From the NCBI GenBank assembly GCA_029204225.1, contig CM055094.1, positions 20,323,489 through 20,387,488 of the forward strand: a DNA stretch of 64,000 nt. Direction: 5' to 3'. Source of the DNA: Diphasiastrum complanatum (lineage: Eukaryota; Streptophyta; Lycopodiopsida; Lycopodiales; Lycopodiaceae). Positions 4,579 through 61,850 of the stretch are shown here, in pieces. Position 1 is the first letter of the stretch, and the number at the start of each line of letters is the position of its first letter. A program made the translations under genes and the position numbers. A model generated the notes under the pieces. The model saw only the letters and a list, made by a program, of their open reading frames with translations, did not search any database and was not told the origin of the DNA.

Positions 4579-5082
4579 TTGTCAAAACCACACATTCGCC
4601 ACCGACCTCGATTGCGAGACCACTTCATGCTAGCAGATAAAAGCGTGGGAGACTCCCTCAGAACCAGCCAAGAATACCAACTCTACTTCCAGGCCTATTG
4701 CAACAGATTCCATGCAAACGGCTTCTCAAAAGAGAAAGAGTTGCTTCTCTCCACAAGGGCCAACTACAAAGTCGGCCTAGTGAAGCTTACATCGAGAAAG
4801 ACACCCTCGATACAAGCGAAGCATCATGCTTCATCAGATGAAACAGACTCGAATGATATGGATTTTACATTCGAGGAGTTCCATGGCCCAAAAGGGCTGT
4901 CTAAGAAATGCCATGTAAGAGAGAGAAAATCGTCGAATTTTAAAACTCCGACCGAGTTTTTGGTCTGCCCGCACAACTCCGATGACTTGACCTCACTAGT
5001 AATGTATGTAGTTAACTGGAAGTTGGGTAGTCGCAACGCGTGGGATCCATACTTCAAGATTCTATTTTCTACCATTAACTAA
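4579..5082 (+). pseudogene. ORF-M, 5'-deleted copy (unrecognised repeat-borne protein)
   Basis: A 167-codon open frame begins inside the ORF-M sequence at the R-P-R-L-R-D-H motif. It carries the conserved Q-E-Y-Q-L-Y-F-Q-A-Y-C-N-R-F-H segment, then an acidic Ser/Asp-rich stretch. Compared with the 59.6-60.0 kb copy, the N-terminal two thirds are missing and about 120 bp are added at 4,862-4,984. I do not recognise the family: there is no transposase, RT or zinc-finger motif. Its recurrence in at least five places marks it as repeat-borne. Confidence 0.5.
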
Positions 5083-5555
5083 CATGACTTCTCATGTAAT
5101 TGCAAATTGTATTGCACATCAAAGTTTTCTTTCCATCTACTAAACCGTTTACCTCAAAGAAAAATAGTCTTATCGATCTGCAAATCATGGCAAGAAACTT
5201 TGAATATTTTGGAACACAATGAGCGCCAACATGAATCTAAATTTTTGAAATTCAGAAAATACGGAGTGTGTTGGATCAAATGGAGCAGCAAGGTTATCTC
5301 AAACTTTTGCAGTTCAAAAATTTGCAATTTCAACACACATCTATTGAAAAAATATTTTGCTTATTTTGCTCATAACTGCAAAGCTTTGATTTTGCATATA
5401 AAGCAAGAAACATGGAGTGTGATGGATCAAAAAGAGCGCCAAGGTCATTTCAAACTTTTCCAATTAATTTTTTTTTATAATTAAGACAAGTTTTAATAGC
5501 TTACAAGATATATAACAAGTGGGTTTTCTACTAGATTAATCTATCGATTGTTAAG
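5083..5555 (+). repeat. AT-rich block between ORF-M and gene G (block n)
   Basis: The same block lies at 60,001-60,517 (+) and 45,166-45,830 (-). It contains imperfect internal copies of a GGATCAAAxxGAGCGxCAAGG-like unit near 5,270 and 5,420. No supported gene. Confidence 0.5.
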
Positions 5556-7261
5556 ATGTCTAAATATCATCTCCATATTGATCTTCCCACAGAATATGCT
5601 CCACTGTCGAGAAAAAATCTGAAAGGATCCACCTTACCAGCTCACCAAAGGACGAAAGACAGGAAACAATGTGATCTATGAGTTGATGGAAGTTTGTATC
5701 CAATCGATCCAAGCTCAATGCAACATCCAAATTTTAGATCGGTCACACAACTCATACTGTTTTTGTGTGAAGGACACAATGGTCTATTGGGTTATTTTGA
5801 AAGATTGAAAAGTTATGGCATTAGTAATTCAATGAAAAAAATCCACTATTTGGAAAATATGTTGAATGGCTTGCTTACTGACTACCGAGAAAAAGAAACT
5901 TTTTTTTGCAAACAAAAAAAGAAAATGAAATCTTGAAGATAGATAATTCTCGTTTGCAAGATATTATATTAAACCTCAACCGAGGAACTGACAATATGAA
6001 ACTAATTGTACAAACATTGTGTACCTCATATTGTCAAATTAATGTAGAAGAAAACCCATTACGAAAGAAAATACTGAACAATAAGCGAAAAAGAGTTATT
6101 TTAAAAAGTATTGATGAGCTCTCAACAAGTGGGGGTCAACGGACAAAAAGAATATATCCTTTCAAGTAAGATTATGTTTTAAAATATTCATGTGTCTTGT
6201 TTCATCTAGCACATCAATGGTTGTGAATTGTTTTTTTTCTAAATCTTATTTTTGTTTTGCAGAGCAGCTTTAGTCACCAATGAAAATCCGAAAGACAAGG
6301 ACATGATTGGAAAGTCTTTGAGTGCAGTACTTATAGCCCAGTCAACGACGAGTCTACTTGGAAATCAACGATAGTCTCGAATCAAGTCCAAGATTGCAGA
6401 GGCCCCTATGGGCGAAGTCGGCAAGATCATTGACCGAAAATTGATACAAGGAGCATGTGATTATTCTGGTTTTAGCAGGGATGCATATGACACAATGTTT
6501 AAAATTATCAAAGAGGCATTTGGACAAGTACATATAAAACAATTTTCTATTCCTCGACCCTTTCAAATCAAATTAGAGAGGGATGTGTTAAACAGGGGTT
6601 TGCAAAACATCATTGGTATTTCTTACCATATCAATGAAATTTATAACTCAAAACATGGCACTTTGTCATATGATTCTACCAACAATATGTTTGTAGATCT
6701 GAATCATTTATAGAGATTTATTGTAAAGTTTTATTGAATCACAAACGAAATTGTTGAAAAATTGATATTAGTTCTCCAAGTTCGATGAATCAGAAGTAAT
6801 AAAGGGACAAAAGTTGGAAAATGTTAATGTTACACTTCTGAATGGAACATTAAGCAATACGATAAACTCGGAGAGTCTTAATTTCATTGTGCAGTCCGAA
6901 ATAATATTTGGTGGTTGGCAGCTTTCCAGGTTTAAATCTATTCTATTGAGTACTAGCAACTAATTCATTTCAAGAATTAACGGTTTTGTGTTTTAAGCTA
7001 AAATTGTTTTGTTATCATAGGTCTGAGTTCAATTCTCTTCAAATAGTTCATGATTTTGTGTTTCAAACATGTTTAAAAGAAGATCATGAAATTCAATTTT
7101 GGATTTTTAGTAAAATAGAATATCCACAGATAATTAAGAATCAGATGAGCGACACACCACTCAATGTTCCTAGAATAGGTGATTTTAAGGTGGAATGGTA
7201 TTTGGTTCACACACCAAGAGCTACATGGAGTGAAAATCCAAAACTTACCGAAATGTTTTAA
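5556..7261 (+). pseudogene. gene G, multi-exon gene of unknown function, decayed
   Basis: The most complete copy in the window. From ATG 5,556 the frame runs past an in-frame TGA (5,679-5,681) and then a one-base shift in a T8 run near 5,900. A Lys/Glu-rich, heptad-like segment follows to 6,167. A GT-AG intron is clear at 6,168-6,261 (TTCAAGTAAG ... TTTTGCAG). The next exon has a stop at the TAG near 6,373, then a 101-codon stretch to 6,712 with a D-Y-S-G-F-S-R-D-A-Y-D motif. A further pair of exons (about 6,760-6,930 and 7,021-7,261, separated by a possible GT-AG intron ending ATCATAG) encodes an acidic, then aromatic-rich C-terminus. Other copies keep only the last exon(s) (28.6, 35.1, 44.9 and 60.7 kb). 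No family recognised. Intron structure indicates an originally host-type nuclear gene carried inside the repeat. Confidence 0.55.
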
Positions 7262-7329
7262 CTGATCAAACAACATTTATATAGCTAAAACCAATAAAAC
7301 CCAAGCCGTACACTCGTCGATCCAACAGC

Positions 7330-7740
7330 GGATCAGATCTATGGCGCGTAATACAACCGTCCACACGTGTGAGACCTCACGTGCTACAATACATGTCAAT
7401 CTGCCATTCGGCCACGTGCCCACACGTGCGAGCTAAGACGTGCCAGAACACACGTCACCAAACCATTCGACCACATGGCCACATGTGCAAGTTTCACACA
7501 TGCGGATACAAAAGTGTGGTCCCACACGTCAAGTACTGATTGGGCCACGTGACCACACGTGCGAGCCGATACGTGCAAAAACACATGTCACTGATCCATT
7601 CGGCCACGTGTCCCCACATGGGATCCCACCCGTGTTGATCCAGACGTGCAGTTTCACACATGCGTATACAAACATGTGGTTCCACATGTCAGCTACTGAC
7701 TGGGCCACGTGTCACTGGGATTTACACGTGCCAACTTTTT
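7330..7740 (+). promoter_or_regulatory. G-box (CACGTG) array upstream of the H3-like gene
   Basis: Nine CACGTG palindromes occur in about 400 bp, together with many ACGTG/CATGTG variants in short, irregular repeats built on GGCCACGTGxCC and CACACGTG. CACGTG is the core recognised by plant bZIP (ABRE-type) and bHLH/PIF factors. The array ends just before TATATAAG at 7,746 and the H3-like ATG at 8,081. The same order is kept at 28.2, 34.7 and 44.7 kb (inverted). Confidence 0.65.
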
Positions 7741-8080
7741 TCTCCTATATAAGTCCATTCGCAAGGATTGTATAGGTTTTCGCGTAATTTGCTGTCATGT
7801 TTGACTGCTTCCATATGACCTACATTCGTGATATCGCCATCATGAGAGCGACCTCGTCCCCAGGCCTATTCCTTAAACCCTCTCACGTCGTAGCGATATC
7901 AGCCTGACTTTCCGAGTATCGCCATCATGCAAGTCCCTGCCTCTCCCCGCCTGTCTTTGCCACTCTCTCGCGTTGTAGCGATATCACTCTTAGAGTTCTT
8001 AGTGTCGCCATTACGCGATATAATTTAGCTCTCTCTTATGCTGTATCTTTGTCCTCGCATGGTATAGATATCCGGCCTCA
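7741..8080 (+). promoter_or_regulatory. TATA box and GATATC-repeat leader of the H3-like gene
   Basis: TATATAAG lies at 7,746-7,753. Downstream, about three units of a ~75-85-bp repeat contain GCGATATCA and TATCGCCATCATG motifs (about 7,830-8,030). The corresponding leader in the 27.9 kb copy has TATAAATA about 20 bp before the ATG; here that site is mutated to TATAGATA. Confidence 0.5.
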
Positions 8081-8537
8081 ATGGCTCGGACGAAGCAAAC
8101 TGCTAGGCTTACCCATTTTCTTCAACCGTCCCATCCCCAGACATCTGAACCCATACGTCTGCAAAGACACGGAAGACCTCGCCTCCATGGTTGAGGGACA
8201 TCAGGGCCTTACAGAGGTACACCAAACTTGTGATCCTGAAAGCAGCCTTGTACCGGGCTGTGAGGGAGGTTACAAAGATATGACCACGCATCTGCCCTAT
8301 GCAGTGAGGTGGAATATCACTACATTGGAGGCCCTCCATATTGCATACGAGGACTTCCAGACAAAATTGTTTGAGGATTCGATGCAGTGTTCCATTCATG
8401 GCAAGAGGGTGACACTGATGCCCAAGGACATGCTTCTTGTCATGAGGTTTCGAAACACCTATGACAGCGGTATGCCACATGGTAAATCATGCAGGCTTGA
8501 GGGTTGCCATGTGGCAAGCCATGTAGGCCTACCATAA
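8081..8537 (+). pseudogene. histone H3/CENH3-like gene, frameshifted copy
   Basis: It begins with M-A-R-T-K-Q-T-A-R, identical to the H3 N-terminus, then leaves the H3 tail (Leu-Thr instead of Lys9-Ser10). A one-base deletion near 8,190 gives a stop soon after. A second indel near 8,275 brings back the frame of the fold helices (Y-A-V-R-W...L-F-E-D-S-M...K-R-V-T-L-M-P-K-D). The tail after that is encoded by satellite sequence. It is a broken copy of the gene open at 27,419-27,877, with the same upstream G-box array. Confidence 0.85.
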
Positions 8538-24293: not shown

Positions 24294-24930
24294 AAAATTA
24301 AAAAAAAATGAAAAACTATTTCTCCTTAGAGACATTGTGGTCATCATCTAGACGAGCTGTGCTTGCTTGAATCAATAGAAACAAGAAAAATAATAATAAC
24401 GAGTTTTTATCCTGTTAATGCACCACTAATATATAAATATAATTGAATTAAATGGGAAGATTATGATATTTATCGCTTCATTTAAACATTGATCTACTCA
24501 TTTCAATGATTTTGTTCAAATTCCATTTCCAATGATTTGTGAAGTGTGAATGAATGCAATGTAACTTGCATATGTTTGGAACATAGCATAGATTCATTAT
24601 ATGCTTTTTAACTATATGTTATTTAGTCGTGTAACAAGGAATAAGCATTTTTTTTAACAAATTTTCAATTTGTTTTTGGAAACCCTAGATTACAACATTT
24701 TAATATATTAACAAAAATGACTTAATTTGCATGAACAACTTTCAGTTTTGAAAATGCTAGATTACAGCTTCATTCAATCTTCAATTTTCCAACCTCGTTC
24801 AAACTTCAATGAAATATAATTCATTCCAAAATCCATTCTCGAATCCTAGAACGACGTATTTTAAAAACTTTTGTAATGTGAAAGAGAGATCACTAAGCTA
24901 AAACATGACCCTGATTGCATTCGGAATTGC
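24294..24930 (+). repeat. AT-rich block Z interior
   Basis: AT-rich noncoding sequence between the inverted-repeat arm and the tandem array. No gene seen. Confidence 0.5.
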
Positions 24931-26130
24931 TTTCAAAAACTTATAAATTGTATTCATCAATGGAGATGTCTAGAGGACATGGTGTGAAAAATTGTCAACT
25001 AGTTTGGTTTTTTATTTGGCAATTTTGGAGGCCAAAATGAATCTCAACTTCGAGTTAGTTTCATATTTGTTAATAAGGGCCTAAATAGTGGTTTAACTAC
25101 CTCTGGCAAGTAGATAAGTGGATGAGGTCAAGTTTGGACCTATTCTAATTGGCTAAATTTTGTTTCATTGCTTTCAAAAACTTATAAATTGTTTTCATCA
25201 ATGGAGATGTCTAGAGGACATGGTGTGAAAAATTGTCAACTAGTTTGGTTTTTCATTTGGCAATTTTGGAGGCCAAAATGAATCTCAACTTCGAGTTAGT
25301 TTCATATTTGTTAATAAGGGCCTAAATAGTGGTTTAACTACCTCTGGCAAGTAGATAAGTGGATGAGGTCGAGTTTGGACCCATTCTAATTGGCTAAATT
25401 TTGGTTCATTGCTTTCAAAAACTTATAAATTGTATTCATCAATGGAGATGTCTAGAGGACATGGTGTGAAAAATTGTCAACTAGTTTGGTTTTTCATTTG
25501 GCAATTTTGGAGGCCAAAATGAATCTCAACTTCAAGTTAGTTTCATATTTGTTAATAAGGGCCTAAATAGTGGTTTAACTACCTCTGGCAAGTAGATAAG
25601 TGGATGAGGTCGAGTTTGGACCCATTCTAATTGGCTAAATTTTGGTTCATTGCTTTCAAAAACTTATAAATTGTATTCATCAATGGAGATGTCTAGAGGA
25701 CATGGTGTGAAAAATTGTCAACTAGTTTGGTTTTTCATTTGGCAATTTTGGAGGCCAAAATGAATCTCAACTTCAAGTTAGTTTCATATTTGTTAATAAG
25801 GGCCTAAATAGTGGTTTAACTACCTCTGGCAAGTAGATAAGTGGATGAGGTCAAGTTTGGACCCATTCTAATTGGCTAAATTTTGGTTCATTGCTTTCAA
25901 AAACCTATAAATTGTTTTCATCAATGGAGATGTCTAGAGGACATGGTGTGAAAAATTGTCAACTAGTTTGGTTTTTCATTTGGCAATTTTGGAGGCCGAA
26001 ATGAATCTCAACTTAGCGCTAGTTTCATATTTGTTAATAAGGGCCTAAATAGTGGTTTAACTACGTCTGGCAAGTAGATCAGTGGATGAGGTCGAGTTTG
26101 GACCCATTCTAATTGGCTGCTTTTGGTACA
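24931..26130 (+). repeat. tandem array, 5 copies of a 241-bp unit
   Basis: Unit start CTTTCAAAAAC at 24,931, 25,171, 25,412, 25,653 and 25,894 (period 240-241). Copies differ by only a few bases. Copy number varies among the units (3, 5, 2, 2). Confidence 0.96.
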
Positions 26131-26681
26131 TTGCATCTAGACAGAATTTTCTAGGTTTTTGATAAAGTATCTAGAAGTTTCCAAATTAGGTGAAGTTTGG
26201 GGCAAGTGGCCAAATGACATTTTGGAAGCTATAAATAGTTGTACCTAATTGGAGAAATAATCATAAAAGTTTCTTTCTTTGTGGAGAATTCATCTCTTAT
26301 GTCCATCTCATGTGATTTTCTCTATCTTGGTTTTCTATGTGTAGAATGTTGATTTTCTTGTAGATCTTGATTCCACACGTGTGAAGATTATAATATATAT
26401 GATTTTGTTAAACATCGATCTACAAAAATTTCAACGATTTTTCTTCAAATTCAAATTTAACGATCTTCCCATGTGTGGTGAGTTGGTGTATGCGCTTTTG
26501 TTAGGCTTGTACACTCAAGTTCGATTCTTTGGGATCCCTCGCCAACTGTGGTTTCAATACTTTCTCTGCAAGATTCTCATTTGAAATTTGCTTGGGACCC
26601 TTCTTATCTTCATCAGATATTTTTTTCAACGTTGATGCTAGGCCATACCACAGGGAAGTAGTTCATGTGTGACTCCTCACT

Positions 26682-27418: not shown

Positions 27419-27877
27419 TTATGGTAGGCCCACATGGCTTGCCACATGGCAACCCTCAAGCCTGCATAATTTGCCATCTAGCATACCGCTGTCATAGGTC
27501 TTTCGAAACCTCATGACAAGAAGCATGTCCTTGGGCATCAGTGTCACCCTCTTGCCATGAATGGAACACAGCATCGAATCCTCAAACAATTTTGTCTGGA
27601 AGTCCTCGTATGCAATATGGAGGGCCTCCAATGCAGCGATATTCCACCTCACTGCATAGGGCAGATGGGTGGTCATATCTTGTGTAACCTCCCTCACAGC
27701 CCGGTACAAGGCTGCTTTCAGGATCACAAGTTTGGTGTACCTCTGCAAGGCTCTGATGTCCCTCAACCATGGATGGTGAGGTCTTCCACGTCTTTGCGGA
27801 CATATGGGTTCAGATGTCTGGGGACGAGACAGTTGAACAAAATGGGTAAGCCTAGCGGTTTGCTTCGTCCACGCCAT
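27419..27877 (-). CDS. histone H3/CENH3-like protein, open copy (152 codons)
   Basis: Histone fold protein; H3-family members pair with H4 in nucleosomes. The tail starts M-A-W-T-K-Q-T-A-R-L-T (Arg2 to Trp; Lys9-Ser10 replaced by Leu-Thr). The alphaN/alpha1 region has R-P...L-R-D-I-R-x-L-Q-R-x-T-K-L-x-I and V-R-E-V. The alpha2-alpha3 region has V-R-W...L-F-E-D-S-M-L-C-S-I-H-G-K-R-V-T-L-M-P-K-D. There are 32 residues between R-E-V and L-F-E-D, against 28 in canonical H3. A longer loop 1, the R-W pair, S-M-L-C and R-V-T-L-M are features of plant CENH3. The usual C-terminal A-R-R-I-R-G-E-R-A is replaced by M-R-F-R-K-T-Y-D-S-G and about 25 residues read from satellite. The frame extends 22 codons upstream of the chosen ATG, which was picked for the M-A-x-T-K start. 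It may be a young pseudogene rather than a working gene. Confidence 0.75.
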   Translation of the reverse strand: MAWTKQTARLTHFVQLSRPQTSEPICPQRRGRPHHPWLRDIRALQRYTKLVILKAALYRAVREVTQDMTTHLPYAVRWNIAALEALHIAYEDFQTKLFEDSMLCSIHGKRVTLMPKDMLLVMRFRKTYDSGMLDGKLCRLEGCHVASHVGLP

Positions 27878-28210
27878 TGAGGCCGGATATTTATACCACG
27901 TGAGGACAGAGATACAGCAGAAGAGAGCTAAATTATCTCGCATAATGGCGACACTGAGAACTCTAAAGGTGATATCGCTACTACGCGAGAGAGTGGCAGG
28001 GGCAGGCAGGGAGAGGCAGGGGTTTGCATGATGGCGATACTGGGAAAGTCAGGCTGATATCGCTACGACGTGAGAGGGTGTACGGAATAGGCCTAGGGAC
28101 AAGGTCGCTCGCATGATGGCGATATCATGAATGCAGGTCGTATGGAAGCAATCAAACATGACAGCAAATTACGCGAAAACCTATACAATCCCCGGGAATG
28201 GACTTATATA
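27878..28210 (-). promoter_or_regulatory. leader and TATA box of the open H3-like copy
   Basis: On the minus strand TATATAAG lies at 28,203-28,210. GATATC/ATGGCGAT repeats follow at about 27,940-28,130, and TATAAATA about 20 bp before the ATG. Counterpart of 7,741-8,080. Confidence 0.5.
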
Positions 28211-28610
28211 GGAGAAAAAAGTTGGCACGTGTGAATCCCAGTGACACATGGCCCAGTTAGTAGCTGACATGTGGAACCACACGTTTGTATACGCATGTGT
28301 GAAACTGCACGTCTGGATCAACACGTGTGGGATCCCATGTGGGGACACGTGGCCGAATGGACAGCGGCATGTGTTCTTGCACGTATCGGCTCGCACGTGT
28401 GGTTACGTGGCCCAATCAGTAACTGACGTGTGGGACCACACTTCTGTATCCGCACGTGTGAAACTTGCACATGTGGCCATGTGGTCGAATGGTCTGGTGA
28501 CATGTGTTCTGGCACATGTTAGCTCGCTCATGTGGGCACGTGGCCGAATGGCAGATTGACGTGTATTGTAGCACGTGTGGTCTCACACGTGTGGACGGTT
28601 GTATTACGCG
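28211..28610 (-). promoter_or_regulatory. G-box array (unit 1)
   Basis: Multiple CACGTG palindromes with CACGTGTGG and GGGCACGTGGCCGAATGG motifs, in the same relation to the H3-like gene as at 7,330-7,740. Confidence 0.65.
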
Positions 28611-28620
28611 CCATACATCT

Positions 28621-29110
28621 GATCCGCTGTTGGATCGACGAATGTACGGCTTGGGTTATATTGGTTTTAGCTATATAAATGTTGTTTGATCAGTTAAAAT
28701 TTTTCGCTAAGTTTTGGATTATCACTCCCTGTAGCTCTTGGAGTGTGAACCAAATACCATTTCGTCTTAAAATGACCTATTCTAGGAACACTGAGTGGTG
28801 TGTCGCTCATATGATTCTTAATTATCTTTGGATATTCTGTTCTACTAAAAATCCAAAATAAAATTTCATGATCTTCTTTAAAACCTGTTTGAAACACAAA
28901 ATCATGAACTATTTTAAGAGAATTGAACTGATACCTATAATAACAAAACAATATTAGCTTAAAACACAAAACCATTAATTCTTGAAATGAATTAGTTGCT
29001 AGTACTCAATAGAATAGATTTCAACCTGGGAAGCTGCCAAACACCAAATATTATTTTCGGACTGCACACTGAAATTAACACTCTTTGAGTTAATCGTATT
29101 GCTTAATGTT
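28621..29110 (-). pseudogene. gene G, 3' exons only (unit 1)
   Basis: Minus-strand counterpart of about 6,820-7,300. The last exon is open at 28,694-28,930 and the upstream exon remnant runs to about 29,100. There it is joined to ORF-X sequence (ATTCATAAG / TCATGGGCC). This is the tandem-unit breakpoint, found again at about 35,575. Confidence 0.6.
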
Positions 29111-29123
29111 CCATTCATAAGTC

Positions 29124-30074: not shown

Positions 30075-31950
30075 ACAAAGGTTATGAAGAAAATCCTTTA
30101 GGCCCAATTTTTTGAATTGAGTACATTGAAAACATCAACATTTGTTGATTGGAGCTTTTAAGATTGACCATTATAGTCATCTAGGGCCAATGTATATGGC
30201 CTTCAACTGCTAATCTATCTCTCCACTGCTTCTGAAATGTCCACTTTAGTTCATAATCTATGATCTAGATATACCTTCTTCTCGTTGTGTATATATATAT
30301 GTTCTCATCGTTGATATTTGATTTAATGTATTAAATGACCATTGAATGCTCATTAAATCAAAATCAACATTAATTAGGTTACACATATTCTGTTCAAAAA
30401 ATATTTGGACACACAATGAAAATATCATATCGACAAGAGGGAACATATCAAGGCAAAAGGACTAGACAGAAATTGTTTGTTAGTGATCATCCATCCAAAG
30501 TAGGTGCACCACTTCCAAATTCTAATGTTACTCCAAGCCTTTTTGTGAGACTACTAATATTTTTGGAAAACACATGTTCTTCATATTCCAAGCATGCTCA
30601 GCATACCTCCAAACACATAGCAAAGTAAACCGTACATCTTCTTTCCTTGCCCTACTTGTTGGTCTTCATCTCGTATGGTAAGTACTCGACCCTTGATTGT
30701 TCCTTTGAAGAAGAGCTTTTTGCTATAGTTTCAAGAGAGAGGCTTCCTGGAAAAGGGTCAACTTGGGAGTAGCTTAATATACCAATGTCATTTCAAATCA
30801 TGATAGCTTCATGGTTGTCACTCAAAATAACAGTGAATTTTTTGGTCACTTGGGGTAGCTTGATATGTAGCTAGGCAACTAAACAACAAATCACCTCTAG
30901 ATGGCTTCACAAGCTTGCCTAACTCCTTCTTATAATTACTACCATTGTGTCTAACTTGCCAAATGCTAGGTGTAAAAGTATTTGACAAATGCATGACTCT
31001 TTACTCTCCAAGTCTTAAGACTTACCAAGTGTTGTTTGTAGCTCAACCTAGATGCTTTGAGAAGTTATATTAAGAAATGGGGGCGGGGGGGTTATCGCAA
31101 AGAATCCGATCTTGCCAAATACTGGGTGTAAAAGTGTTTGACATATTCCTAACTCTTTACTCTCCAAGTGTTGTTTTTAGCTCATAGTACATGCTTTGAG
31201 AATAATGTTACTGGTTATATTAATTTGGGGGGATTGCAAAGAATCGTACTTGAGTGTACAAGCCCAACTCAAGTGCAGATGGGAAGATCATTAAATTTGA
31301 ATCTGAAGAAAAATCAAAATTAAAAAAAAATGAAAAACTATTTCTCCTTAGAGGCATTGTGGTCATCATCTAGACGAGCTGTGCTTGTTTGAATCAATAG
31401 AAACAAGGAAAATAATTATAACGAGTTTTTATCCTGTTAATGCACCACTAATATATAAATATAATTGAATTAAATGGGAAGATTATGATATTTATCGCTT
31501 CATTTAAACATTGATCTACTCATTTCAATGATTTTGTCAAATTCCATTTCCAATGATTTGTGAAGTGTGAATGAATGCAATGTAACTTGCATATGTTTGG
31601 AACATAGCATAGATTCATTATATGCTTTTTAACTATATGTTATTTAGTCGTGTAACAAGGAATAAGCATTTTTTTAAACAAATTTTCAATTTGTTTTTGG
31701 AAACCCTAGATTACAACATTTTAATATATTAACAAAAATGACTTAATTTGCATGAACAACTTTCAGTTTTGAAAATGCTAGATTACAGCTTCATTCAATC
31801 TTCAATTTTCCAACCTCGTTCAAACTTCAATGAAATATAATTCATTCCAAAATCCATTCTCGAATCCTAGAACGACGTATTTTAAAAACTTTTGTAATGT
31901 GAAAGAGAGATCACTAAGCTAAAACATGACCCTGATTGCATTCGGAATTG
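30075..31950 (+). repeat. blocks Y and Z (tandem unit 2)
   Basis: Copy of 22,948-24,930, including the 70-codon frame 30,416-30,628 and an inverted-repeat arm near 31,220-31,320. A segment around the G tract is deleted relative to unit 1. Confidence 0.55.
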
Positions 31951-32420
31951 CTTTCAAAAACTTATAAATTGTATTCATCAATGGAGATGTCTAGAGGACA
32001 TGGTGTGAAAAATTGTCAACTAGTTTGGTTTTTTATTTGGCAATTTTGGAGGCCAAAATGAATCTCAACTTCGAGTTAGTTTCATATTTGTTAATAAGGG
32101 CCTAAATAGTGGTTTAACTACCTCTGGCAAGTAGATAAGTGGATGAGGTCAAGTTTGGACCCATTCTAATTGGCTAAATTTTGGTTCATTGCTTTCAAAA
32201 ACCTATAAATTGTTTTCATCAATGGAGATGTCTAGAGGACATGGTGTGAAAAATTGTCAACTAGTTTGGTTTTTCATTTGGCAATTTTGGAGGCCGAAAT
32301 GAATCTCAACTTCGAGTTAGTTTCATATTTGTTAATAAGGGCCTAAATAGTGGTTTAACTACCTCTGGCAAGTAGATCAGTGGATGAGGTCGAGTTTGGA
32401 CCCATTCTAATTGGCTACTT
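31951..32420 (+). repeat. tandem array, 2 copies of the 241-bp unit
   Basis: Units begin at 31,951 and 32,192. Confidence 0.95.
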
Positions 32421-33881
<1,461 letters not shown>

Positions 33882-34339
33882 TTATGGTAGGCCCACATGG
33901 CTTGCCACATGGCAACCCTTAAGCCTGCATAATTTGCCATCTGGCATACCGCTGTCATAGGTCTTTCGAAACCTCATGACAAGAAGCATGTCCTTGGGCA
34001 TCAGTGTCACCCTCTTGCCATGAATGGAACACAGCATCGAATCCTCAAACAATTTTGTCTGGAAGTCCTCGTATGCAATATGGAGGGCCTCCAATGCAGC
34101 GATATTCCACCTCACTGCATAGGGCAGATGGGTGGTCAATCTTGTGTAACCTCCCTCACAGCCCGGTACAAGGCTGCTATCAGGATCACAAGTTTGGTGT
34201 ACCTCTGCAAGGCTCTGATGTCCCTCAACCATGGATGGTGAGGTCTTCCGCGTCTTTGCGGACGTATGGGTTCAGATGTCTGGGAACAGGACAGTTGAAC
34301 AAAATGGGTAAGCCTAGCGGTTTGCTTCGTCCGAGCCAT
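33882..34339 (-). pseudogene. histone H3/CENH3-like gene, one-base frameshift
   Basis: ATG at 34,339 starts M-A-R-T-K-Q-T-A-R-L-T and is open through V-R-E-V-T-Q-D. A one-base deletion at about 34,137 then shifts the frame. The remaining helices (Y-A-V-R-W ... K-R-V-T-L-M-P-K-D) are intact in the other frame to the satellite-encoded tail. It lies 6,462 bp from the open copy and differs from it only slightly. Confidence 0.85.
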
Positions 34340-35085
34340 TGAGGCCGGATATCTATACCACGCGAGGACAGAGATACAACAGAAGAGAGAGCTTAATTAT
34401 CTCGCATAATGGCGACACTGAGAACTCTAAAGGTGATATCGCTACAACGCGAGAGAGTGGCAGAGACAGGCGGGGAGAGGCAGGGGCTTGCATGATGGCG
34501 ATACTGGGAAAGTCAGGTTGATATCGTTACAATGTGAGAGGGTGTAAGGAATAGGCCTAGGGACGAGGTCGCTCGCATGATGGCGATATCATGAATGCAG
34601 GTCATATGGAAGCAATCAAACATGACAACAAATTACGTGAAAACCTATACAATCCCCGGGAATGGACTTATATAGGAGAAAAAAGTTGGCACGTGTGAAT
34701 CCCAATGACACATGGCCCAGTCAGTAGCTGACATGTGGAAGCACACATTTGTATACGCATGTGTGAAACTGCACGTCTGGATCAACACGTGTGGGATCCC
34801 ATGTGGGGACACGTGGCCGAATGGACAACGGCATGTGTTCTTGCACATATCGGCTCGCACGTGTGGTTACGTGGCCCAATCAGTAACTGACGTGTGGGAC
34901 CACACTTCTGTATCCGCACGTGTGAAACTTGCACATGTGGCCATGTGGTCGAATGGTCTGGTGACATGTGTTCTGGCACATGTTAGCTCGCTCATGTGGG
35001 CACGTGGCCGAATGGCAGATTGACGTGTATTGTAGCACGTGTGGTCTCACACGTGTGGACGGTTGTATTACGCGCCATACATCTG
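34340..35085 (-). promoter_or_regulatory. leader, TATA and G-box array (unit 2)
   Basis: Copy of 27,878-28,610 shifted by 6,464 bp. It contains minus-strand TATATAAG near 34,667-34,674 and the CACGTG array at 34,685-35,065. Confidence 0.6.
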
Positions 35086-35575
35086 ATCCGCTGTTGGATC
35101 GACGAATGTACGGCTTGGGTTATATTGGTTTTAGCTATATAAATGTTGTTTGATCAGTTAAAATTTTTCGCTAAGTTTTGGATTATCACTCCCTGTAGCT
35201 CTTGGAGTGTGAACCAAATACCATTTCGTCTTAAAATGACCTATTCTAGGAACACTGAGTGGTGTGTCGCTCATATGATTCTTAATTATCTTTGGATATT
35301 CTGTTCTACTAAAAATCCAAAATAGAATTTCATGATCTTCTTTAAAACCTGTTTGAAACACAAAATCATGAACTATTTTAAGAGAATTGAACTGATACCT
35401 ATAATAACAAAACAATATTAGCTTAAAACACAAAACCATTAATTCTTGAAATGAATTAGTTGCTAGTACTCAATAGAATAGATTTCAACCTGGGAAGCTG
35501 CCAAACACCAAATATTATTTTCGGACTGCACACTGAAATTAACACTCTTTGAGTTAATCGTATTGCTTAATGTTC
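35086..35575 (-). pseudogene. gene G, 3' exons only (unit 2)
   Basis: Almost identical to 28,621-29,110. The last exon is open at 35,158-35,395. It ends at the same ORF-X junction. Confidence 0.6.
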
Positions 35576-35587
35576 CATTCATAAGTC

Positions 35588-37070: not shown

Positions 37071-37540
37071 CTTTCACAAACTTATAAATTGTATTCATCA
37101 ATGGAGATGTCTAGAGGACATGGTGTGAAAAATTGTCAACTAGTTTGGTTTTTTATTTGGCAATTTTAGGGACCAAAATGATCTCAACTTCGAGTTAGTT
37201 ACATATTTGTTAATAAGGGCCTAAATAGTGGTTTAACTACCTCTGGCAAGTAGATAAGTGGATGAGGTCGAGTTTGGACCCATTCTAATTGGCTAATTTT
37301 GGTACATTGCTTTCAAAAAACTTATAAATTGTATTCATCAATGGAGATGTCTAGAGGAGATGGTGTGAAAAATTGTCAACTAGTTTGGTTTTTCATTTGG
37401 CAATTTTGGAGGCCAAAATGAATCTCAACTTCGAGTTAGTTTCATATTTGTTAATAAGGGCCTAAATGGTGGTTTGACTACCTCTGGCAAGTAGATCAGT
37501 GGATGAGGTCGAGTTTGGACCCATTCTAATTGGCTAATTT
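37071..37540 (+). repeat. tandem array, 2 copies of the 241-bp unit
   Basis: Units begin at 37,071 and 37,310. They are slightly more diverged than in unit 1. Confidence 0.93.
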
Positions 37541-37910
37541 ATGTACATGGCATCTAGACTAGATTTTCTAGGTGTCTGATAAAGTATCTAGTAGTTTCCA
37601 AATTAGGTCAAGTTTGGGGCAAGTGGCCAAATGACATTTTGGAAGCTATAAATAGTTGTACCTAAGTGGAGAAATAATCATCAAAGTTTCTTTCTTTGTG
37701 GAGAATTCATCTCTTATGTCCATCTCATGTGATATTTTTCTTCAAATTCAAATTTAACGATCTTCCCATGTGTGGTGAGTTGGTGTATGCGCTTTTGTTG
37801 GGCTTGTACACTCAAGTTCGATTCTTTGGGATCCCTCGCAAACTGTGGTTTGTATACTTTCTCCGCAAGATTCTCATTTGAAATTTGCTTGGGACCCTTC
37901 TTATCTCCAT
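37541..37910 (+). repeat. block e, left of the LTR element (unit 3)
   Basis: About 110 bp between CATGTGAT and ATTTTTCTTC (near 37,733) are missing relative to units 1 and 2. It ends with the target-site duplication TCCAT at 37,906-37,910. Confidence 0.65.
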
Positions 37911-43611: not shown

Positions 43612-44395
43612 CCACTCAAGCCTACATGGCAGACCCACGTGGTATAGCTTAGTTGGCTTGCCACAAAAGCCTATGTCAAGCCTATATGGGAGACTGCAAC
43701 ATACCACCATGAACATACTAGCATCAAGCCTATGTCATGCCTATATGACCTACCATGCAAGCCTATGATAGGCCTACATGGCTTGCCACATGGCAAGTCC
43801 CAAGCCTGTGTGGTTTATCTCATGACATGCCTACATGGCTTGCCACATGGCAACTTGGGAGCCCCAGATCTCTCTCTCTAGCTCCACTCAAGCCTACATG
43901 GCAGAGCTTGGTTGGCTTGCCACACAAGCCTATGGCAAGCCTATGTGGTATCCTACGACATGCTTATGTGGGAAGCATCAGAAATATGCCATGTCTATGT
44001 GGCCTGCCACGCAAGCCTATGGTTTATCTCATGACATGCCTACATGGCTTGCCACATGGCAACTTGGGAGCCCCAGCTCTCTCTCTCTAGCTCCACTCAA
44101 GCCTACATGGCAGAGCTTGGTTTACTTGCCACACAAGCCTATGGCAAGCCTATGTGGTAGCCTACGACATGCTTACGTGGGAAGGATCAGAAGTATGCCA
44201 TGCCTATGTGGCCTGCCATGCAAGCCTATGGTAGGCCTGTGTGGTTTGCCAAGTGGCAACTTTTGCGCCCACCTATATATATATATATATAGATCTCTAG
44301 GTCCACTCAAGCCTACGTGGCACAGGGCCCAGTTGGCTTGACATACAAGGTTATGGTAGGCCCACATGGCTTGCCACATGGCAACCCTCAAGCCT
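43609..44395 (-). repeat. CATAGG/CCTACATGG satellite, unit 3
   Basis: Same satellite with ~210-bp units. It includes a (TA)n tract near 44,275. Confidence 0.85.
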
Positions 44396-44640
44396 TCATG
44401 ATTTGCCATGTGGCATACCGCTGTCATAGGTCCTCATGACAAGAAGCATGTCCTTGGGCATTAGTGTCACCCTCTTGCCATGAATGGAACACAGCATCGA
44501 ATCCTCAAACAATTTTGTCTGGAAGTCCTCGTATGCAATATGGAGGGCCTCCAATGCAGCGATATTCCACCTCATTGCATAGGGCAGATGCGTGGTCATA
44601 TCTTGTGTAACCTCTCTCATATCTTGTCTAACCTCCCTCA
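44396..44640 (-). pseudogene. histone H3/CENH3-like gene, 5'-truncated copy
   Basis: Only the part from V-R-E-V onward is present. R-E-V-x-Q-D-M is duplicated by a small tandem repeat, and three residues (F-R-K) are deleted after V-M-R. The N-terminal tail, leader and TATA box are gone; the G-box array follows directly. Confidence 0.85.
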
Positions 44641-44870
44641 CACGTGGCCGAATGGATCAGCGACATGTGTTCGTGCACGTATCGGCTCGCACGTGTGGTC
44701 ATGTGGCCCAATTAGTAACTGATGTGTGGGACCACACTTCTGTATCCGCACATGTGGCCATCTGGTCGAATGGTTTGGTGACATGTGTTCTGGCACGTAT
44801 TACCTTGCATGTGTGGGCACGTGTCCGAATGGCAGATTGACGTGTATTGTAGCACGTGTGGACGATTGTA
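44641..44870 (-). promoter_or_regulatory. shortened G-box array (unit 3)
   Basis: Contains several CACGTG/CACGTGTGG motifs, but about half the length of the other arrays. Confidence 0.55.
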
Positions 44871-45165
44871 TTACGTGCCATAGATCTGATCCGATGTTGG
44901 ATCGACGAGTGTACGGCTTGGGTTTTATTGGTTTTAGCTATATAAATGTTGTTTGATCAGTTAAAACATTTCGCTAAGTTTTGGATTTTCACTCCCTATA
45001 GCTCTTGGTGTGTGAACCAAATATCATTCTGTCTTAAAATGACCTATTCTAGGAACATTGAGTGGTGTGTCGCTCATATGATTCTTAATTATCTCTGGAT
45101 ATTCTGTTTTACTAAAAATCCAAAATAGAATTTCATGATCTTCTTTAAAACCTGTTTGAAACTTG
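44871..45165 (-). pseudogene. gene G, last exon only (unit 3)
   Basis: The last exon ends at GTTTGAAAC and is joined directly to the 5' part of gene G (at about 5,672 in the full copy), so the central exons are deleted. The identical junction occurs at about 60,626. Confidence 0.6.
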
Positions 45166-45830
45166 TTTCCTGTCTTTCGTCCTTTGGTGAGCTGGTAAGG
45201 TGGATCCTTTCAAATTTTTTCTCGACAGTGGAGCATATTCTGTGGAAAGATCAATATGGAGATGATATTTAGACATCTTAATAATCGATAGATTAATCTA
45301 GTAGAAAACCAACTTGTTATATATCTTGTAAGCTATTAAAACTCGTCTTAATTATAAAAAAAAATTAATTGGAAAAGTTTGAAATGACCTTGGCGCTCTT
45401 TTTGATCGATCACACTCCATGTTTCTTGCTTTATATGCAAAATCAAAGCTTTGCAATTATGAGCAAAATAAGCAAAATATTTTTTCAATAGATGTGTGTT
45501 GAAATTGCAAATTTTTGAATTGCAAAAGTTTGAAATAACCTTGTCGCTCTATTTAATCCAACCCACTCCGTATTTTCTGAATTTCAAAAATTTACATTCA
45601 CGTTGGCGCTCATTGTGATCCAAAATATTCAAAGTTTCTTGCCACGATTTTCAAATCGATAAGACTGTTTTTCTTTGATGTGAACGCTTTGAATAGATGG
45701 AAGAAAACTTTGATGTGCAATACGATTTGCATTTACATGAGAAGTTACGTTAGTTAATGGTAGAAAATAGAATCTTGAAGTATGGACCCCATGTGTTGCG
45801 GCTACCCAACTTACAGTTAACTACATACGT
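45166..45830 (-). repeat. gene G 5' stub and block n, inverted
   Basis: Reverse-oriented counterpart of 5,083-5,672 and 60,001-60,625. No intact gene. Confidence 0.6.
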
Positions 45831-46860
45831 CACTAGTGAGGTCAAGCTCCATATCATCTGAGTCTATTTCATCTGCTGAAGCATGACACTTCGCTTGTAT
45901 CTTGGTCCTTTGCCTGGATTGTTGTGTTGGTGGTGGTTGGACCAGTGTGGTGGTGTCTTCATGTTGAGCAAAAGACTCTTCAGCAGAATGATCCTTCGTC
46001 TGTGACATAGAGGACATGGGTGTCTTTCTCGATGTAAGCTTCACTAGGCCGACCGTTTGGTGCTTTGCAGTTGGCCCTTGTGGAGAGAAGGAACTCTTTC
46101 TCTTTTGAGAAGCCGCTTGCGTGGAATCTATTGCAATAGGCCTGGAAGTAGAGTTGGTATTCTTGGCTGGTTCCGAGGGAGTCTCCCAAGCTTTGATCTG
46201 CTAGCATCAAGTGGTCTCGAACTCGAGGTCGGTGGCTCAACTACTACAGTGACATCTATCAGAAGATAGCCCAATAACTGGAGGTTGGCTTGTTCTTGAT
46301 ATAGTCATGGAGGCAGTTGGAAGCAACTTGGGCCCAGTCATAAAGGTTCTAATCGTGTAGTCTAGAATCAGCCATCATGTGGAATAGTTTCATGGGGATA
46401 CGCATGATCTTGGACCTATAGCGCTATGTATATTTAGTTAGATAGGCGCATGGAGTAGCTAAGGGCTTATCATTTATGACCTCGATACGATAACCATCTT
46501 TTTTTCCATTTGTCCACTGAGGGGTCTATGTATTTGAAGTATGCTCCTGTTGACTGTGTTTGGTCCCCTAGGGAAGCCAAATGTATTGAGTTCAGCTCTA
46601 GAAATAGGAATAATATAAACAAAATTTTGGTTAGGAGATAACATGAACTGGAAAATCTGTCATTGTGGTTATAAGCAATAGGCATTAGAAATGGGCTCTG
46701 ATAGCCACTGAAAAGAGGAAGTTGGAACTCTATGTGGCTCAAGAACTAGTGTGCCTCCTAGTACCAAGTGTTCAACTCAGAGATATCGAGGCTTTCCATG
46801 GTGATGTCAATTCTGTTTTGAGTTGGATCATCAGAACTGGAAGATGTTGTGGCAGACATG
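45831..46860 (-). pseudogene. ORF-M, inverted decayed copy
   Basis: Read on the minus strand from the M-S-A-T-T-S-S-like start near 46,860 to the acidic tail at 45,831. The H-R-P-R-V-R-D-H ... H-V-L-Y-V-T-D-E-G-S-F-C part is open at 45,980-46,240. Frameshifts separate it from the upstream part. Confidence 0.5.
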
Positions 46861-58929: not shown

Positions 58930-60000
58930 ATGTCTGCCACAACATCTTCCAGTTATGATGACCCAACTCAAGACATAATTGACATCACCATGGAAAGCCT
59001 CAATATCTCTGAGATGAACACTTGGTACCAGGAGGCACACTAGTTTCTGAGCCACATAGAGTTCCAACTTCCTCTTTTCAGTGGCTATCAGAGTCCATTT
59101 CTATTGCATATTGCTATAACCACACTGACAGATTTTCCAGTTCATATTACCTCCTAGCCAAAATTTTGTTTATATTATCCCTATTTCTGGAGCTAATCTC
59201 AATACATTTGGCTTCCCTAGGAGACCAAACACAGTCAACAGGACCCTCAAAAAGATTGAATCCACAGCATACTTCAAATACATAGACCCCTCAGTGGACA
59301 AATGGAAAAAAAAAGATGGTTATCGTATCGAGGTCATAAATGATAAGCCCTTAGCTGCTCCATGCGCCTATCTAACGAAATATACATAGCGCTACAGGTC
59401 CAAGATCATTCGTATCCCCATGAAACTATTCCACATGATGGTTGATTCTAGACTATATGATCAGAACCTTTATGATTGGGCCCAGTTTGCTTCCAACTGC
59501 CTCCATGACTATATCAAGAACATGCAAACCTCCAGTTATTGGGCTATCTTCTGATAGATGTCACTGTAGCAGTTGAGCCACCGACCTCGAGTTCGAGACC
59601 ACTTGATGCTAGTAGATAAAAGCTTGGGAGACTCCCTCAGAAGCAGCCAAGAATACCAACTCTACTTCCAGGCCTATTGCAACAGATTCCACGCAAGCGG
59701 CTTCTCAAAAGAGAAAGAGTTCCTTCTTTTCACGAGGGCCAACTGCAAAGCACCAAATGGTCGGCCTACTGAAGCTTACATCGAGAAAGACACCCATGTC
59801 CTCTATGTCACAGACAAAGGATCATTCTGCTGAAGAGTCTTTTGCTCAACATGAAGACACCACCACACTGGTCCAACCACCACCAACACAACAGTCCAAG
59901 CAAAGGACCAAGATACGAGCAAAGCATCAAGCTTCATTAGATGAAACAGACTCAGATGATATGGAGCTTGACCTCACTAGTAGTGTATGTAGTTAACTGG
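58930..60000 (+). pseudogene. ORF-M, full-length decayed copy
   Basis: M-S-A-T-T-S-S-S at 58,930. The first frame stops near 59,041. The central motifs continue in shifted frames (59,150-59,390). Then H-R-P-R-V-R-D-H to T-D-K-G-S-F-C is open at 59,573-59,833, and the acidic tail (59,757-59,996) overlaps it in another frame. No recognised domain. Confidence 0.5.
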
Positions 60001-60833
60001 AAGTTGGATAGCCGCAACGCATGGGGTCCATACTTCAAGATTCTATTTTCTACCATTAACTAACATAACTTCTCATGTAAATGCAAATCGTATTGCACAT
60101 CAAAGTTTTCTTTCCATCTACTCAAAGCGTTCACATCAAAGAAAAACAGTCTTATCGATCAAAGAAACTTTGAATATTTTGGATCACAATGAGCGCCAAC
60201 GTGAATCTTGAAATTCAGAAAATAAGGAATGTGTTGGATCAAATGGAGCGGCAAGGTTATTTCAAAATTTTGCAATTCAGAAATATGCAATTTCAACACA
60301 CATGTATTGAAAAAATATTTTGCTTATTTTGCTCATAACTTCAAAGCTTTGATTTTGCATATAAAGCAAGAAACTTGGAGTGTGATGGATCAAAAAGAGC
60401 ACCAAGGTCATTTCAAACTTCTCCAATTATTGGTATTTATAATTAAGACGAGTTTTAATAGCTTACAAGATATATAACAAGTTGGTTTTCTACTAGATTA
60501 ATCTATCGATTATTAAGATGTCTAAATATCATCTCCATATTGATCTTTCCACTAAATATGCTCCACTGTCGAGAAAAAATCTGAAAGGATCCACCTTACC
60601 AGCTCCCCAAAGGACGAAATACAGGAAACAAGTTTCAAACAGGTTTTAAAGAAGATCATGAAATTCTATTTTGGATTTTTAGTAAAACAAAACATCCAGA
60701 GATAATTAAGAATGATATGAGCGACACACCACTCAATGTTCCTAGAATAGGTGATTTTAAGGTGGAATGGCATTTGGTTCACACACGAAGAGCTACCAGG
60801 AGTGAAAATCCAAAACTTAGCGAAATGTTTTAA
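60001..60833 (+). pseudogene. block n and gene G with central exons deleted
   Basis: Block n is followed by the gene G ATG at 60,518 and its first ~100 bp. At about 60,626 (AGGAAACA / AGTTTCAAAC) the sequence jumps to the last exon, which stays open to 60,833. About 1.39 kb present at 5,673-7,060 is missing. Confidence 0.6.
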
Positions 60834-60839
60834 CTGATC

Positions 60840-61340
60840 AAACAACATTTACATAGCTAAAACCAATAAAACCCAAGCCGTACACTCGTCGATCCAACAA
60901 CGGATCAGATCTATGGCGCGTAATACAACCGTCCACACGTGTGAGATCACACGTGCTACAATACACGTCAATCTGCGATTCGGCCACGTGCCCACACGTG
61001 CGAGCTAACACGTGCCAGAACACACGTCATCAAACCATTCGACCACATGGCCACATGTGCAAGTTTCACACATGCGGATACAAAAGTGTGGTCCCACACG
61101 TCAGGTACTAATTGGGCCACGTGACCACACGTGCGAGCCGATACGTGCAAGAACACATGTCGCTGATCCATTCGGCCACGTGTCCCCACGTGGGATCCCA
61201 CACGTGTTGATCCAGACATGCAATTTCATACATGCGTATACAAACGTGTGGTTCCACATGTCAGCTACTGACTGGGCCACGTGTCGCTGGGATTCACACG
61301 TGCCAACTTTTTTCTCCTATATAAGTCCATTCCCGAGGAT
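60840..61340 (+). promoter_or_regulatory. G-box array without an H3-like gene
   Basis: CACGTG-rich array with TATATAAG near 61,318, as at 7,330-7,753. The H3-like gene that should follow is absent; unrelated sequence and satellite take its place. Confidence 0.6.
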
Positions 61341-61850
61341 TGTACAATGGCCGGTGATTCCTGGGATTTCAGAAAGCTCAACATACGATGAGTTGAGGCT
61401 ACAACTACAACCACATAGTCCTACCATAGGCTTGTGTGGTTTACCGTATGGCCTACCATAGACTTGTGTAGCAGGCCACATAGTCCTGCGATTGACCAAG
61501 GCTGTTATAGGTGCCCACGTGTCAAGTCACGTACGGCTGCCAAGTGACAAATCATGCAGGCTTGGGGCTAGCCACGTGGCAAGCCACACAGGCCCATCTT
61601 AGGCTGGCAAGCCAACCAAGCTCTGCCTACGTGGTCTGCTATTTGCGAAGCCTATCGCACACTACCACATGGCAAGCCACGTAGGTCTACCACATGGCAA
61701 ATCATGCAGGCTTGAGGGTTGCCATGTGGCAAGCCATGTAGGCCTACCATTACCTTGTATGTCAAGTCAACTGGGCCCTGTGCCATGTAGGCTTGAGTGG
61801 ACCTAGAGATCTATATATATATATAGGTGGGCTCAAATCTCTTGCCATAA
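61341..61850 (+). repeat. satellite with H3-like gene deleted
   Basis: The CATAGGCTTG satellite resumes. Sequence equivalent to the tail of the H3-like gene (from AAATCATGCAGGCTTGAGGG) appears at about 61,698, but the histone fold is gone. Confidence 0.7.

What the first reader, a model, noticed from the sequence alone, without database searches (positions are those of the whole stretch)
27419..27877. CENH3-like histone gene carried and multiplied by a repeat; one open copy
Four copies (8,081; 27,877; 34,339; 44,640) of an H3-family gene sit at the same place in a composite repeat. The sequence has an H3-like M-A-R-T-K-Q-T-A-R start but CENH3-like core features: 32 residues instead of 28 between R-E-V and L-F-E-D (long loop 1), an R-W pair, S-M-L-C and R-V-T-L-M. 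One copy is open for 152 codons. A mobile or amplified centromeric-histone relative, if expressed, could act as a dominant variant or a decoy, or could seed small RNAs against the host gene. Function is inference.
Basis: partly seen in the sequence, partly recalled or inferred. Interest (0 to 1): 0.92.

Follow-up and report, generated by a model that had tools for sequence, protein, structure and literature searches.

The report
Transposons carrying their own histone H3
The histone-like gene in this plant-like window is a worn, shortened copy of a gene carried by a very large family of jumping DNA elements; in the lineages that jumped, its histone core stayed under selection, and its tail lacks the lysine that hosts normally mark to silence such elements.

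Summary
The ORF is real: 152 codons with an H3 histone fold (Pfam Histone 1.9e-20). It is not a lone CENH3 duplicate but a truncated copy of a gene carried by ~10-kb DNA elements with terminal inverted repeats, scattered over this 1.74-Gb genome; one subfamily's 3' terminus occurs 1,462 times. Outside the local array the fold continues into a basic linker and a C-terminal region, and often lies ~3.2-4.2 kb downstream of a transposase-like gene. In 19 sampled copies, changes private to one copy look neutral, but shared changes show purifying selection on the H3 region (p=0.002); two copies of a related subfamily give dN/dS 0.07 in the fold. Nine array copies show no selection. CENH3 affinity is weak: the +4 loop and R-W are absent from the other subfamilies sampled, and trees give a separate clade. 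The tail keeps ARTKQTAR without K9: of 534 genome-wide ARTKQTAR-coding sites, 26 are followed by lysine, 24 of them at host H3 genes. Best reading: transposon-encoded H3 variants, perhaps anti-silencing (inferred). Fungal hAT elements with captured H3 are the closest precedent seen.

The parts
27419..27877 (-). H3-like ORF, open for 152 codons; codons 1-129 from the transposon, codons 130-152 read from the adjacent tandem repeat
33882..34339 (-). second full-length H3-like copy (MARTKQTAR start), one frameshift near 34139
8081..8537 (+). third full-length H3-like copy (MARTKQTAR start), frameshifted
44354..44620 (-). fragment of the H3-like gene from codon 61, with a gap and a stop; no start region
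4868..7205 (+). 5' terminal part of the transposon (element positions -6045 to -3710 relative to the H3-like start codon), 93% identical to the C8 element
7205..8466 (+). element positions -847 to +387 (region upstream of the H3-like gene plus H3 fold), joined to -3710 by an internal deletion that removes most of the transposase-like gene
27490..28750 (-). same -847 to +387 segment at the reported locus
28750..29120 (-). element positions -4081 to -3710, same deletion junction
33953..35214 (-). element positions -847 to +387, second unit
35214..35584 (-). element positions -4081 to -3710, second unit
44640..45846 (-). element pieces (-847 to -444; -3856 to -3710; -5928 to -5247)
59967..61346 (+). 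element pieces without the histone (-5928 to -5247; -3856 to -3710; -847 to -280)
24926..26134 (.). 241-bp tandem repeat next to the reported copy; further arrays at 31947-32432, 37070-37548 and 9817-10538

Best explanation
The window ORF is a truncated copy of a gene that belongs to a large family of ~10-kb DNA transposons with terminal inverted repeats. The gene encodes a divergent histone H3 variant: an H3 fold, an N-terminal tail starting ARTKQTAR but lacking lysine 9 and almost all other tail lysines, a basic linker and a C-terminal region. SHOWN: the element ends, the co-occurrence with a transposase-like gene, the copy number, purifying selection on the H3 region in the lineages that transposed, neutral decay of single copies, and absence of K9 in nearly all non-host copies that keep ARTKQTAR. 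Here one internally deleted derivative, cut off at the end of the H3 fold, was amplified in an array on C3 (and C14), where it evolves like dead sequence. INFERRED: the full protein pairs with host H4 and enters nucleosomes, on the element's DNA or more widely, giving chromatin that keeps the K4 face but cannot take H3K9 methylation, so the element escapes H3K9me-linked DNA methylation long enough to be transcribed and to transpose. The confidence given is for the family, its selection and an H3-variant role; for the anti-silencing step alone I would say 0.3.
For: Ends CATTA(T/C/G)AGGAGTT..CCAAAAGGGC / GCCCTTTTGGTGCTCAAAACTCCTCTAATG with unrelated flanks. 1,462 sites of the 3' end at up to 3 mismatches, 0 in the reversed control. 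27 of 143 scored transposase-like places have a listed H3-like place within 12 kb, 25 on the same strand, 0.54 expected; same-strand links by transposase identity: 18 of 86 (above 80%), 7 of 31 (73-75%), 0 of 26 (70-72%). Selection: 19 dispersed copies, singletons N66 S23 stop3, close to the neutral mix, against shared by 3 or more copies N14 S19, Fisher p=0.0023; p=0.0025 without CpG sites; shifted frames p=0.39 and 0.79. L045 vs L046, a related lineage with the same fused C-terminal region (profile match 3.4e-11 and 2e-9; best of 200 shuffles 0.05): dN 0.043, dS 0.584, ratio 0.074 over 96 fold codons. Tail: 534 ARTKQTAR-coding sites genome-wide, 26 with Lys9, 256 with Leu/Phe, 14 followed by GT, 20 with Arg/Ser; Leu9 in 19 of 19 dispersed copies, and 1 Lys in the majority tail where H3 has 8. 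CpG-biased decay, as expected if copies were methylated.
Against: No transcript, protein or chromatin data. Within the recent subfamily the linker and C-terminal region show no selection (shared by 3 or more: N18 S5 stop3, p=0.80; by 2 or more: N38 S19 stop4, p=0.24), and shared stops suggest that this frame is broken or spliced out in some lineages. Tail lysines could be lost because the tail is unused; selection on codons 1-36 alone is borderline (p=0.03-0.09). The copies were apparently methylated in the end. The 19 copies came from the top of a score-ranked list. dN/dS 0.074 rests on one pair, whose place inside a transposon is inferred from the shared architecture, not from element ends. 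26 of 26 transposase places at 70-72% identity have no listed H3-like neighbour (the lists are capped).
Confidence: 0.6

Rival explanations
1. Pure passenger: a host H3 was captured once and copied as cargo, with no benefit to the element, as described for fungal hAT elements.
For: Fungal hAT elements carry amplified H3 copies (PMC3538342 passages; PMC6710886 abstract and one section). Many copies here are broken, and nine array copies look neutral. The C-terminal region shows no selection within the recent subfamily.
Against: Purifying selection in transposing lineages, dN/dS 0.074 in a related lineage, linkage present also in a subfamily with 73-75% identical transposases (7 of 31 places), and ARTKQTAR kept at about 500 sites without K9.
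Confidence: 0.15
2. A captured CENH3 that still acts at centromeres, as a dominant variant, decoy or element-targeting factor.
For: R-W, long loop 1 and RVTLM in the window's subfamily. TE+H3 against CENH3 is rejected at p about 0.04, and a TE+plant-CENH3 split is in the best tree with weak support 61-75/92-97. The truncated copies sit in dense blocks on C3 and C14.
Against: Loop length and R-W vary between lineages; the TE proteins form their own clade (97/96 without L044); a separate candidate host CENH3 exon exists; no evidence that the C3 block is a centromere.
Confidence: 0.12
3. The H3 fold is an accessory transposition factor: it docks the element's proteins on chromatin, for example through host H4 or an H3-tail reader, to aim or protect integration, without changing silencing.
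For: Fold under selection, ARTKQTAR reader site kept, basic linker and C-terminal region attached in the longer ORFs.
Against: Does not by itself explain the loss of K9 and the other tail lysines; no insertion-site preference was tested.
Confidence: 0.2
4. A fast-evolving family of ordinary host H3 variants that spread by segmental duplication, with transposons only nearby.
For: The window is full of local duplications. Some linked places are probably the same locus held twice (for example C9/C3792, C4/C692, C5/C1254).
Against: Precise element ends with unrelated flanks, and repeated co-occurrence with the transposase-like gene at a similar spacing and strand on many contigs.
Confidence: 0.04

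Closest known systems
H3L gene in a hAT transposon of Pyrenophora tritici-repentis (PMC3538342; passages seen)
   Same: Histone H3-like ORF between the inverted repeats of a DNA transposon, in 26 copies; ESTs reported for it there
   Different: Fungus; recent, very similar copies; hAT transposase. Here: a plant-like genome, well over a thousand element ends, diverged lineages, no recognised transposase family, a linker and C-terminal region attached, selection measured
H3 captured by a ~9.5-kb hAT element in Pseudocercospora fijiensis and relatives (PMC6710886; abstract and one section seen)
   Same: Element of similar size with TIRs and an H3-like sequence, hundreds of copies
   Different: Copies there inactivated by RIP; 8-bp TSDs; housekeeping H3 origin. 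Here no TSD in 5 elements and purifying selection on the fold
Plant CENH3 / animal CENP-A
   Same: H3 fold; in the window's subfamily a lengthened loop 1 with a tryptophan
   Different: Other lineages lack these marks; own clade; RPGTVAL replaced by a W-L motif. Human CENP-A also has a W-L here, which the tree does not make a shared origin
Helentron of Culex with H4 and H15 fragments (PMC4067079; passages seen)
   Same: Mobile element carrying histone sequence
   Different: Broken fragments, 8 copies, rolling-circle element

Membership tests
Histone H3 superfamily (histone fold) | Significant match to the core histone model with an H3-type alignment | tested here: met
   PF00125 1.9e-20; H3 chains best in PDB; 38-45% identity to canonical H3 for nearly full-length alignments of dispersed copies, about 54% over the fold for L044-L046
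CENH3 / CENP-A | Groups with CENH3 in a tree | tested here: inconclusive
   Own clade; nearest side CENH3, weak support; TE+H3 rejected at p about 0.04 only when other lineages are included; plant CENH3 sequences were recalled, not fetched
CENH3 / CENP-A | Longer loop 1 with W, as a family trait | tested here: not met
   +4 and R-W in the window's subfamily; +1 and R-F in L045/L046; +0 and R-V in L044
CENH3 / CENP-A | Centromeric localisation and kinetochore function | not testable with these tools
   No chromatin data
Replication-type or replacement H3 (H3.1/H3.3) | Tail with K9, K14, K18, K23, K27, K36 | tested here: not met
   One lysine in the majority tail of 19 copies against eight in H3
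TIR DNA transposon | Terminal inverted repeats and repeated sharp ends | tested here: met
   About 30-bp imperfect TIR; 1,462 3' ends
TIR DNA transposon | Target-site duplication | tested here: not met
   None of 2-12 bp in 5 of 5 elements with both ends
TIR DNA transposon | Recognised DDE transposase | tested here: inconclusive
hAT element with captured H3 | hAT transposase and 8-bp TSD | tested here: not met
   No hAT domain in the fragments scanned (the gene was scanned in pieces); no TSD
Pack-type transduplication | High identity to a parental host gene | tested here: not met
   H3-like places outside host H3 genes reach at most 57% identity to H3 in the scored list; 38-55% for fetched copies

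The most novel reading that the evidence does not exclude
A superfamily of plant DNA transposons encodes its own H3 variant as a standing gene. The variant keeps the K4 end of the tail but cannot be methylated at K9 or K27, and is built into nucleosomes to block the H3K9me2/DNA-methylation loop: a transposon-encoded anti-silencing histone.
Probability: 0.3. Interest if true: 0.96.

Novelty: new variant of a known kind. Interest (0 to 1): 0.82.

Why it matters
If the protein enters chromatin, a selfish element would be fighting silencing by changing the histone itself rather than the enzymes. That would make directly testable whether a histone that cannot be methylated at K9 is enough to protect a locus from H3K9-linked silencing in plants. 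It would also offer hundreds to thousands of natural tail and loop variants of H3. Even on the modest reading, it shows a histone kept as a transposon gene over long divergence, which the fungal capture cases, as far as I saw them, did not.

Tried and rejected
Tried without result: Rfam and tRNA scans of the window (none); Pfam on the other ORFs of the element (nothing credible); viral contigs for relatives of the H3-like protein and of the transposase (none confirmed), so no sign of viral origin there; target-site duplications (none in 5); the host CENH3 alpha-2/alpha-3 exon (not recognised, list filled by host H3 and transposon copies); structure prediction (switched off). Considered and rejected: the ORF as the host's own CENH3; ordinary segmental duplication of a host gene; active selection on the window's array copies (9 copies: singletons N23 S13, shared by two or more N12 S8, p=0.78; by three or more N7 S4, p=1.0; low power). 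Literature: searches listed no plant transposon with an H3 gene; only that library of open papers was searched, and preprints are not held. The guess that the host is a lycophyte (about 23 long contigs, 1.74 Gb) is recalled and was not tested (only looked a name up); that it is a plant at all is inferred from its repeats and histones.

Full report
WHAT IS AT THE COORDINATES. Window 27419-27877 on the minus strand is open for 152 codons and has a core-histone match at E=1.9e-20. Its best solved-structure matches are H3 chains, aligned over residues 11-125 with a 4-residue insert ahead of R-W in loop 1. Two more full-length copies (8081 plus strand, 34339 minus strand) are frameshifted, and the fourth (44354-44620) is a fragment with a gap and a stop. 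The open copy starts MAWTKQTAR; the frameshifted full-length copies start MARTKQTAR.

SCALE. The whole genome behind the window is held as G000 (1.745 Gb, 5,176 contigs; the window is C3:20323489-20387488). A protein search gave 6,743 first-look candidates, of which 150 were scored, all of those at E < 1e-64. Two classes appear among the 150. One clusters on C3 at 18.5-21.8 and 29.9-30.2 Mb and on C14 at 49.4-49.9 Mb, mostly with the window's C-terminal end (93 of the 150, 54 of them without an in-frame stop; counted by hand, recounted; the list is the best-scoring subset, so this is biased towards open copies). The other class is dispersed over many contigs and aligns over residues 1 to about 135.

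THE PARENT ELEMENT. I fetched 20 places of 9.9 kb (19 dispersed copies and one C14 array copy), chosen from the top of the list, and 3 upstream stretches. In several dispersed copies the H3-like domain is the N-terminal part of a longer ORF, up to 357 residues from the start codon: H3 fold, a basic PPRKKRKQ linker, and a C-terminal region without a Pfam match. Two copies on C8 and C23 align from about -6045 to +3933 relative to the H3-like start codon of the C8 copy; others align over parts of it. The ends are imperfect inverted repeats of about 30 bp, CATTATAGGAGTTCC...CCAAAAGGGC against CATTAGAGGAGTTTT...CCAAAAGGGC, and flanks are unrelated beyond them. The C8 element is 9,979 bp. No target-site duplication of 2-12 bp was found in 5 of 5 elements with both ends. 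The 3' end alone occurs 1,462 times within 3 mismatches, 0 in the reversed control. Upstream of the histone lie an ORF that looks coiled-coil by eye and a transposase-like gene with motifs such as HLAGDLKSLK and CLYCMKTTHD; minus-strand ORFs lie on both sides of the histone gene. None has a credible Pfam match.

LINKAGE. A 268-residue transposase-like query gave 143 scored places at 70-100% identity out of 12,982 first-look candidates. Compared with 274 distinct H3-like places taken from the listings (array class left out), 27 of 143 have one within 12 kb, 25 on the same strand, 20 of these 2.5-9 kb downstream, most at 3.2-4.2 kb, against 0.54 expected from uniform placement. By transposase identity the same-strand links are 18 of 86 (above 80%), 7 of 31 (73-75%, spacing 3.5-3.9 kb) and 0 of 26 (70-72%). 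The H3-like lists hold only the top 150 each, so these are lower bounds; some linked places are probably one locus held twice in the assembly (C9/C3792, C4/C692, C5/C1254).

SELECTION. In 19 dispersed copies (88-96% identical in pairs) over codons 1-132, changes seen in one copy only are 66 nonsynonymous, 23 synonymous and 3 stops, close to the neutral mix 0.68/0.28/0.04 worked out from the same spectrum. Changes shared by three or more copies are 14 and 19 (Fisher p=0.0023). With two or more copies they are 35 and 33 and one stop (p=0.004); the two shifted frames give p=0.39 and 0.79. Leaving out CpG sites gives 6 and 13 shared (p=0.0025). Against my reading: the linker and C-terminal part shows no such effect (three or more copies: N18, S5, 3 stops, p=0.80; two or more: N38, S19, 4 stops, p=0.24), and its shared stops mean that this frame is broken, or not read as I read it, in some lineages. 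Nine array copies show none either (p=0.78; few sites), and the tail alone is borderline (p=0.03-0.09). In another lineage, L045 against L046 gives dS 0.584, dN 0.043, ratio 0.074 in 96 fold codons, and 0.34 in both the linker and the C-terminal region. L045 and L046 share the fused C-terminal region with the dispersed copies (profile built from four of them: E 3.4e-11 and 2e-9, best of 200 shuffles 0.05); that they lie in a transposon is inferred from this, since their ends were not fetched. Changes at CpG are 79 of 84 C>T/G>A, 2.3 per site against 0.74 at other C/G sites, as expected if the copies were methylated.

RELATION TO CENH3. Lineages differ in loop 1: +4 with R-W (window), +1 with R-F (L045/L046), +0 with R-V (L044, a single place not shown to be in a transposon). 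Trees with host H3, human and yeast H3, three plant CENH3 (recalled sequences), human CENP-A and yeast Cse4 (checked in PDB) put the H3-like proteins in one clade (86/90; 97/96 without L044), separate from the others. TE with H3 against CENH3 is rejected at p=0.037-0.039 when the other lineages are included and not with the window's subfamily alone (p=0.27); TE with CENP-A is not rejected (p=0.30-0.48). So an ancient tie to CENH3 is possible but not shown. A probable host CENH3 exon ([22 protein letters not shown]...PFARLV, followed by GTAAGT) lies at C3:74.79 Mb; I identified it by eye from one exon.

THE TAIL. All 19 dispersed copies have leucine at the H3K9 position, and the majority tail has one lysine (K4) where H3 has eight. 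Genome-wide, DNA that can encode A-R-T-K-Q-T-A-R (the pattern also lets serine stand for R) occurs 534 times, 0 in the control. Lysine follows in 26; 24 of these lie at or next to host H3 genes listed, the other two being C1:40570873 and C17:25721134. Leucine/phenylalanine follows in 256, GT in 14, arginine/serine in 20, other codons in the remaining 218. Since only 14 could be GT splice donors directly after R8, an intron at that point cannot hide K9 in most. In other subfamilies the ARTKQTAR site lies 0.77-0.94 kb upstream of a listed H3-fold place on the same strand (C2:563134 and 563920; C2:672558 and 673344; C2:40900838 and 40901661; C1:67358677 and 67359447; C11:7040656 and 7041600; C8:62812652 and 62813552), which suggests an intron in the tail. 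I counted patterns there and did not read these tails.

HOW THE WINDOW COPY AROSE. Mapping the C8 element onto the window shows units made of the 5' end (to -3710), then -847 to +387, cut at the end of the H3 fold and followed by local tandem repeats. The shared junction -3710/-847 suggests that one internally deleted derivative was amplified. The terminal part CRLEGCHVASHVGLP is read from the tandem repeat. This copy most likely has no function.

MECHANISM. Shown: mobile element, H3 region selected in transposing lineages, K9 absent. Inferred from established chromatin biology (recalled): plant transposons are silenced by a loop between H3K9me2 and DNA methylation, so an element-encoded H3 that keeps the K4 face but lacks K9 could blunt it. 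A chromatin-docking role in transposition is the main rival. No expression data were available.

COMPARISON. Fungal hAT elements with captured H3 are the nearest precedent seen (PMC3538342, passages; PMC6710886, abstract and one section): same idea of a histone between inverted repeats, but other transposases, recent or RIP-killed copies, and, in what I saw, no such selection result on the transposon-borne gene. I saw no plant case in the searches. Hence: new variant of a known kind.

On rechecking I corrected the linkage classes, the intron spacing and the fragment coordinates, added the shared stops and the homology test of the C-terminal region, and marked what is inferred for L044-L046.

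Noticed in passing
window 37911-38559 and 42810-43457 with 39716-42796: Young LTR element: 649-bp LTRs 99.7% identical, with one 1,026-residue ORF that matches only Copia gag, DUF4219 and a zinc knuckle; no pol domain seen in that ORF, so perhaps a gag-only non-autonomous Copia relative.
   Followed up: partly
window 62332-62805: ORF that reads like a Penelope-type reverse transcriptase piece (YIDD motif; recalled, no Pfam match).
   Followed up: no
G000:C3:18.5-21.8 Mb and 29.9-30.2 Mb; C14:49.4-49.9 Mb: Dense blocks of the deletion derivative, in the window mixed with 241-bp and 209-bp tandem repeats; whether the C3 block is a centromere or other heterochromatin is open.
   Followed up: partly
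L016/L037, L026/L038, L014, L015, L018 element ends: Inverted-repeat element ends without any target-site duplication in 5 of 5; the transposase-like gene has no Pfam match, so its class is unassigned.
   Followed up: partly
G000:C1:40570873 and C17:25721134: Two ARTKQTAR-K sites away from recognised host H3 genes; could be K9-bearing transposon copies or H3 pseudogenes. Sequence not fetched.
   Followed up: no
L037 about 2050-6561: A second, diverged relative of the element (68% identity over about 1.45 kb) beside the C8 element, with its own minus-strand ORFs.
   Followed up: no
L009-L027, H3-like tail versus human CENP-A: The transposon H3-like proteins replace RPGTVAL before the fold by a W-L motif, as human CENP-A does; the tree gives no support for a shared origin, so this may be convergence.
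   Followed up: partly
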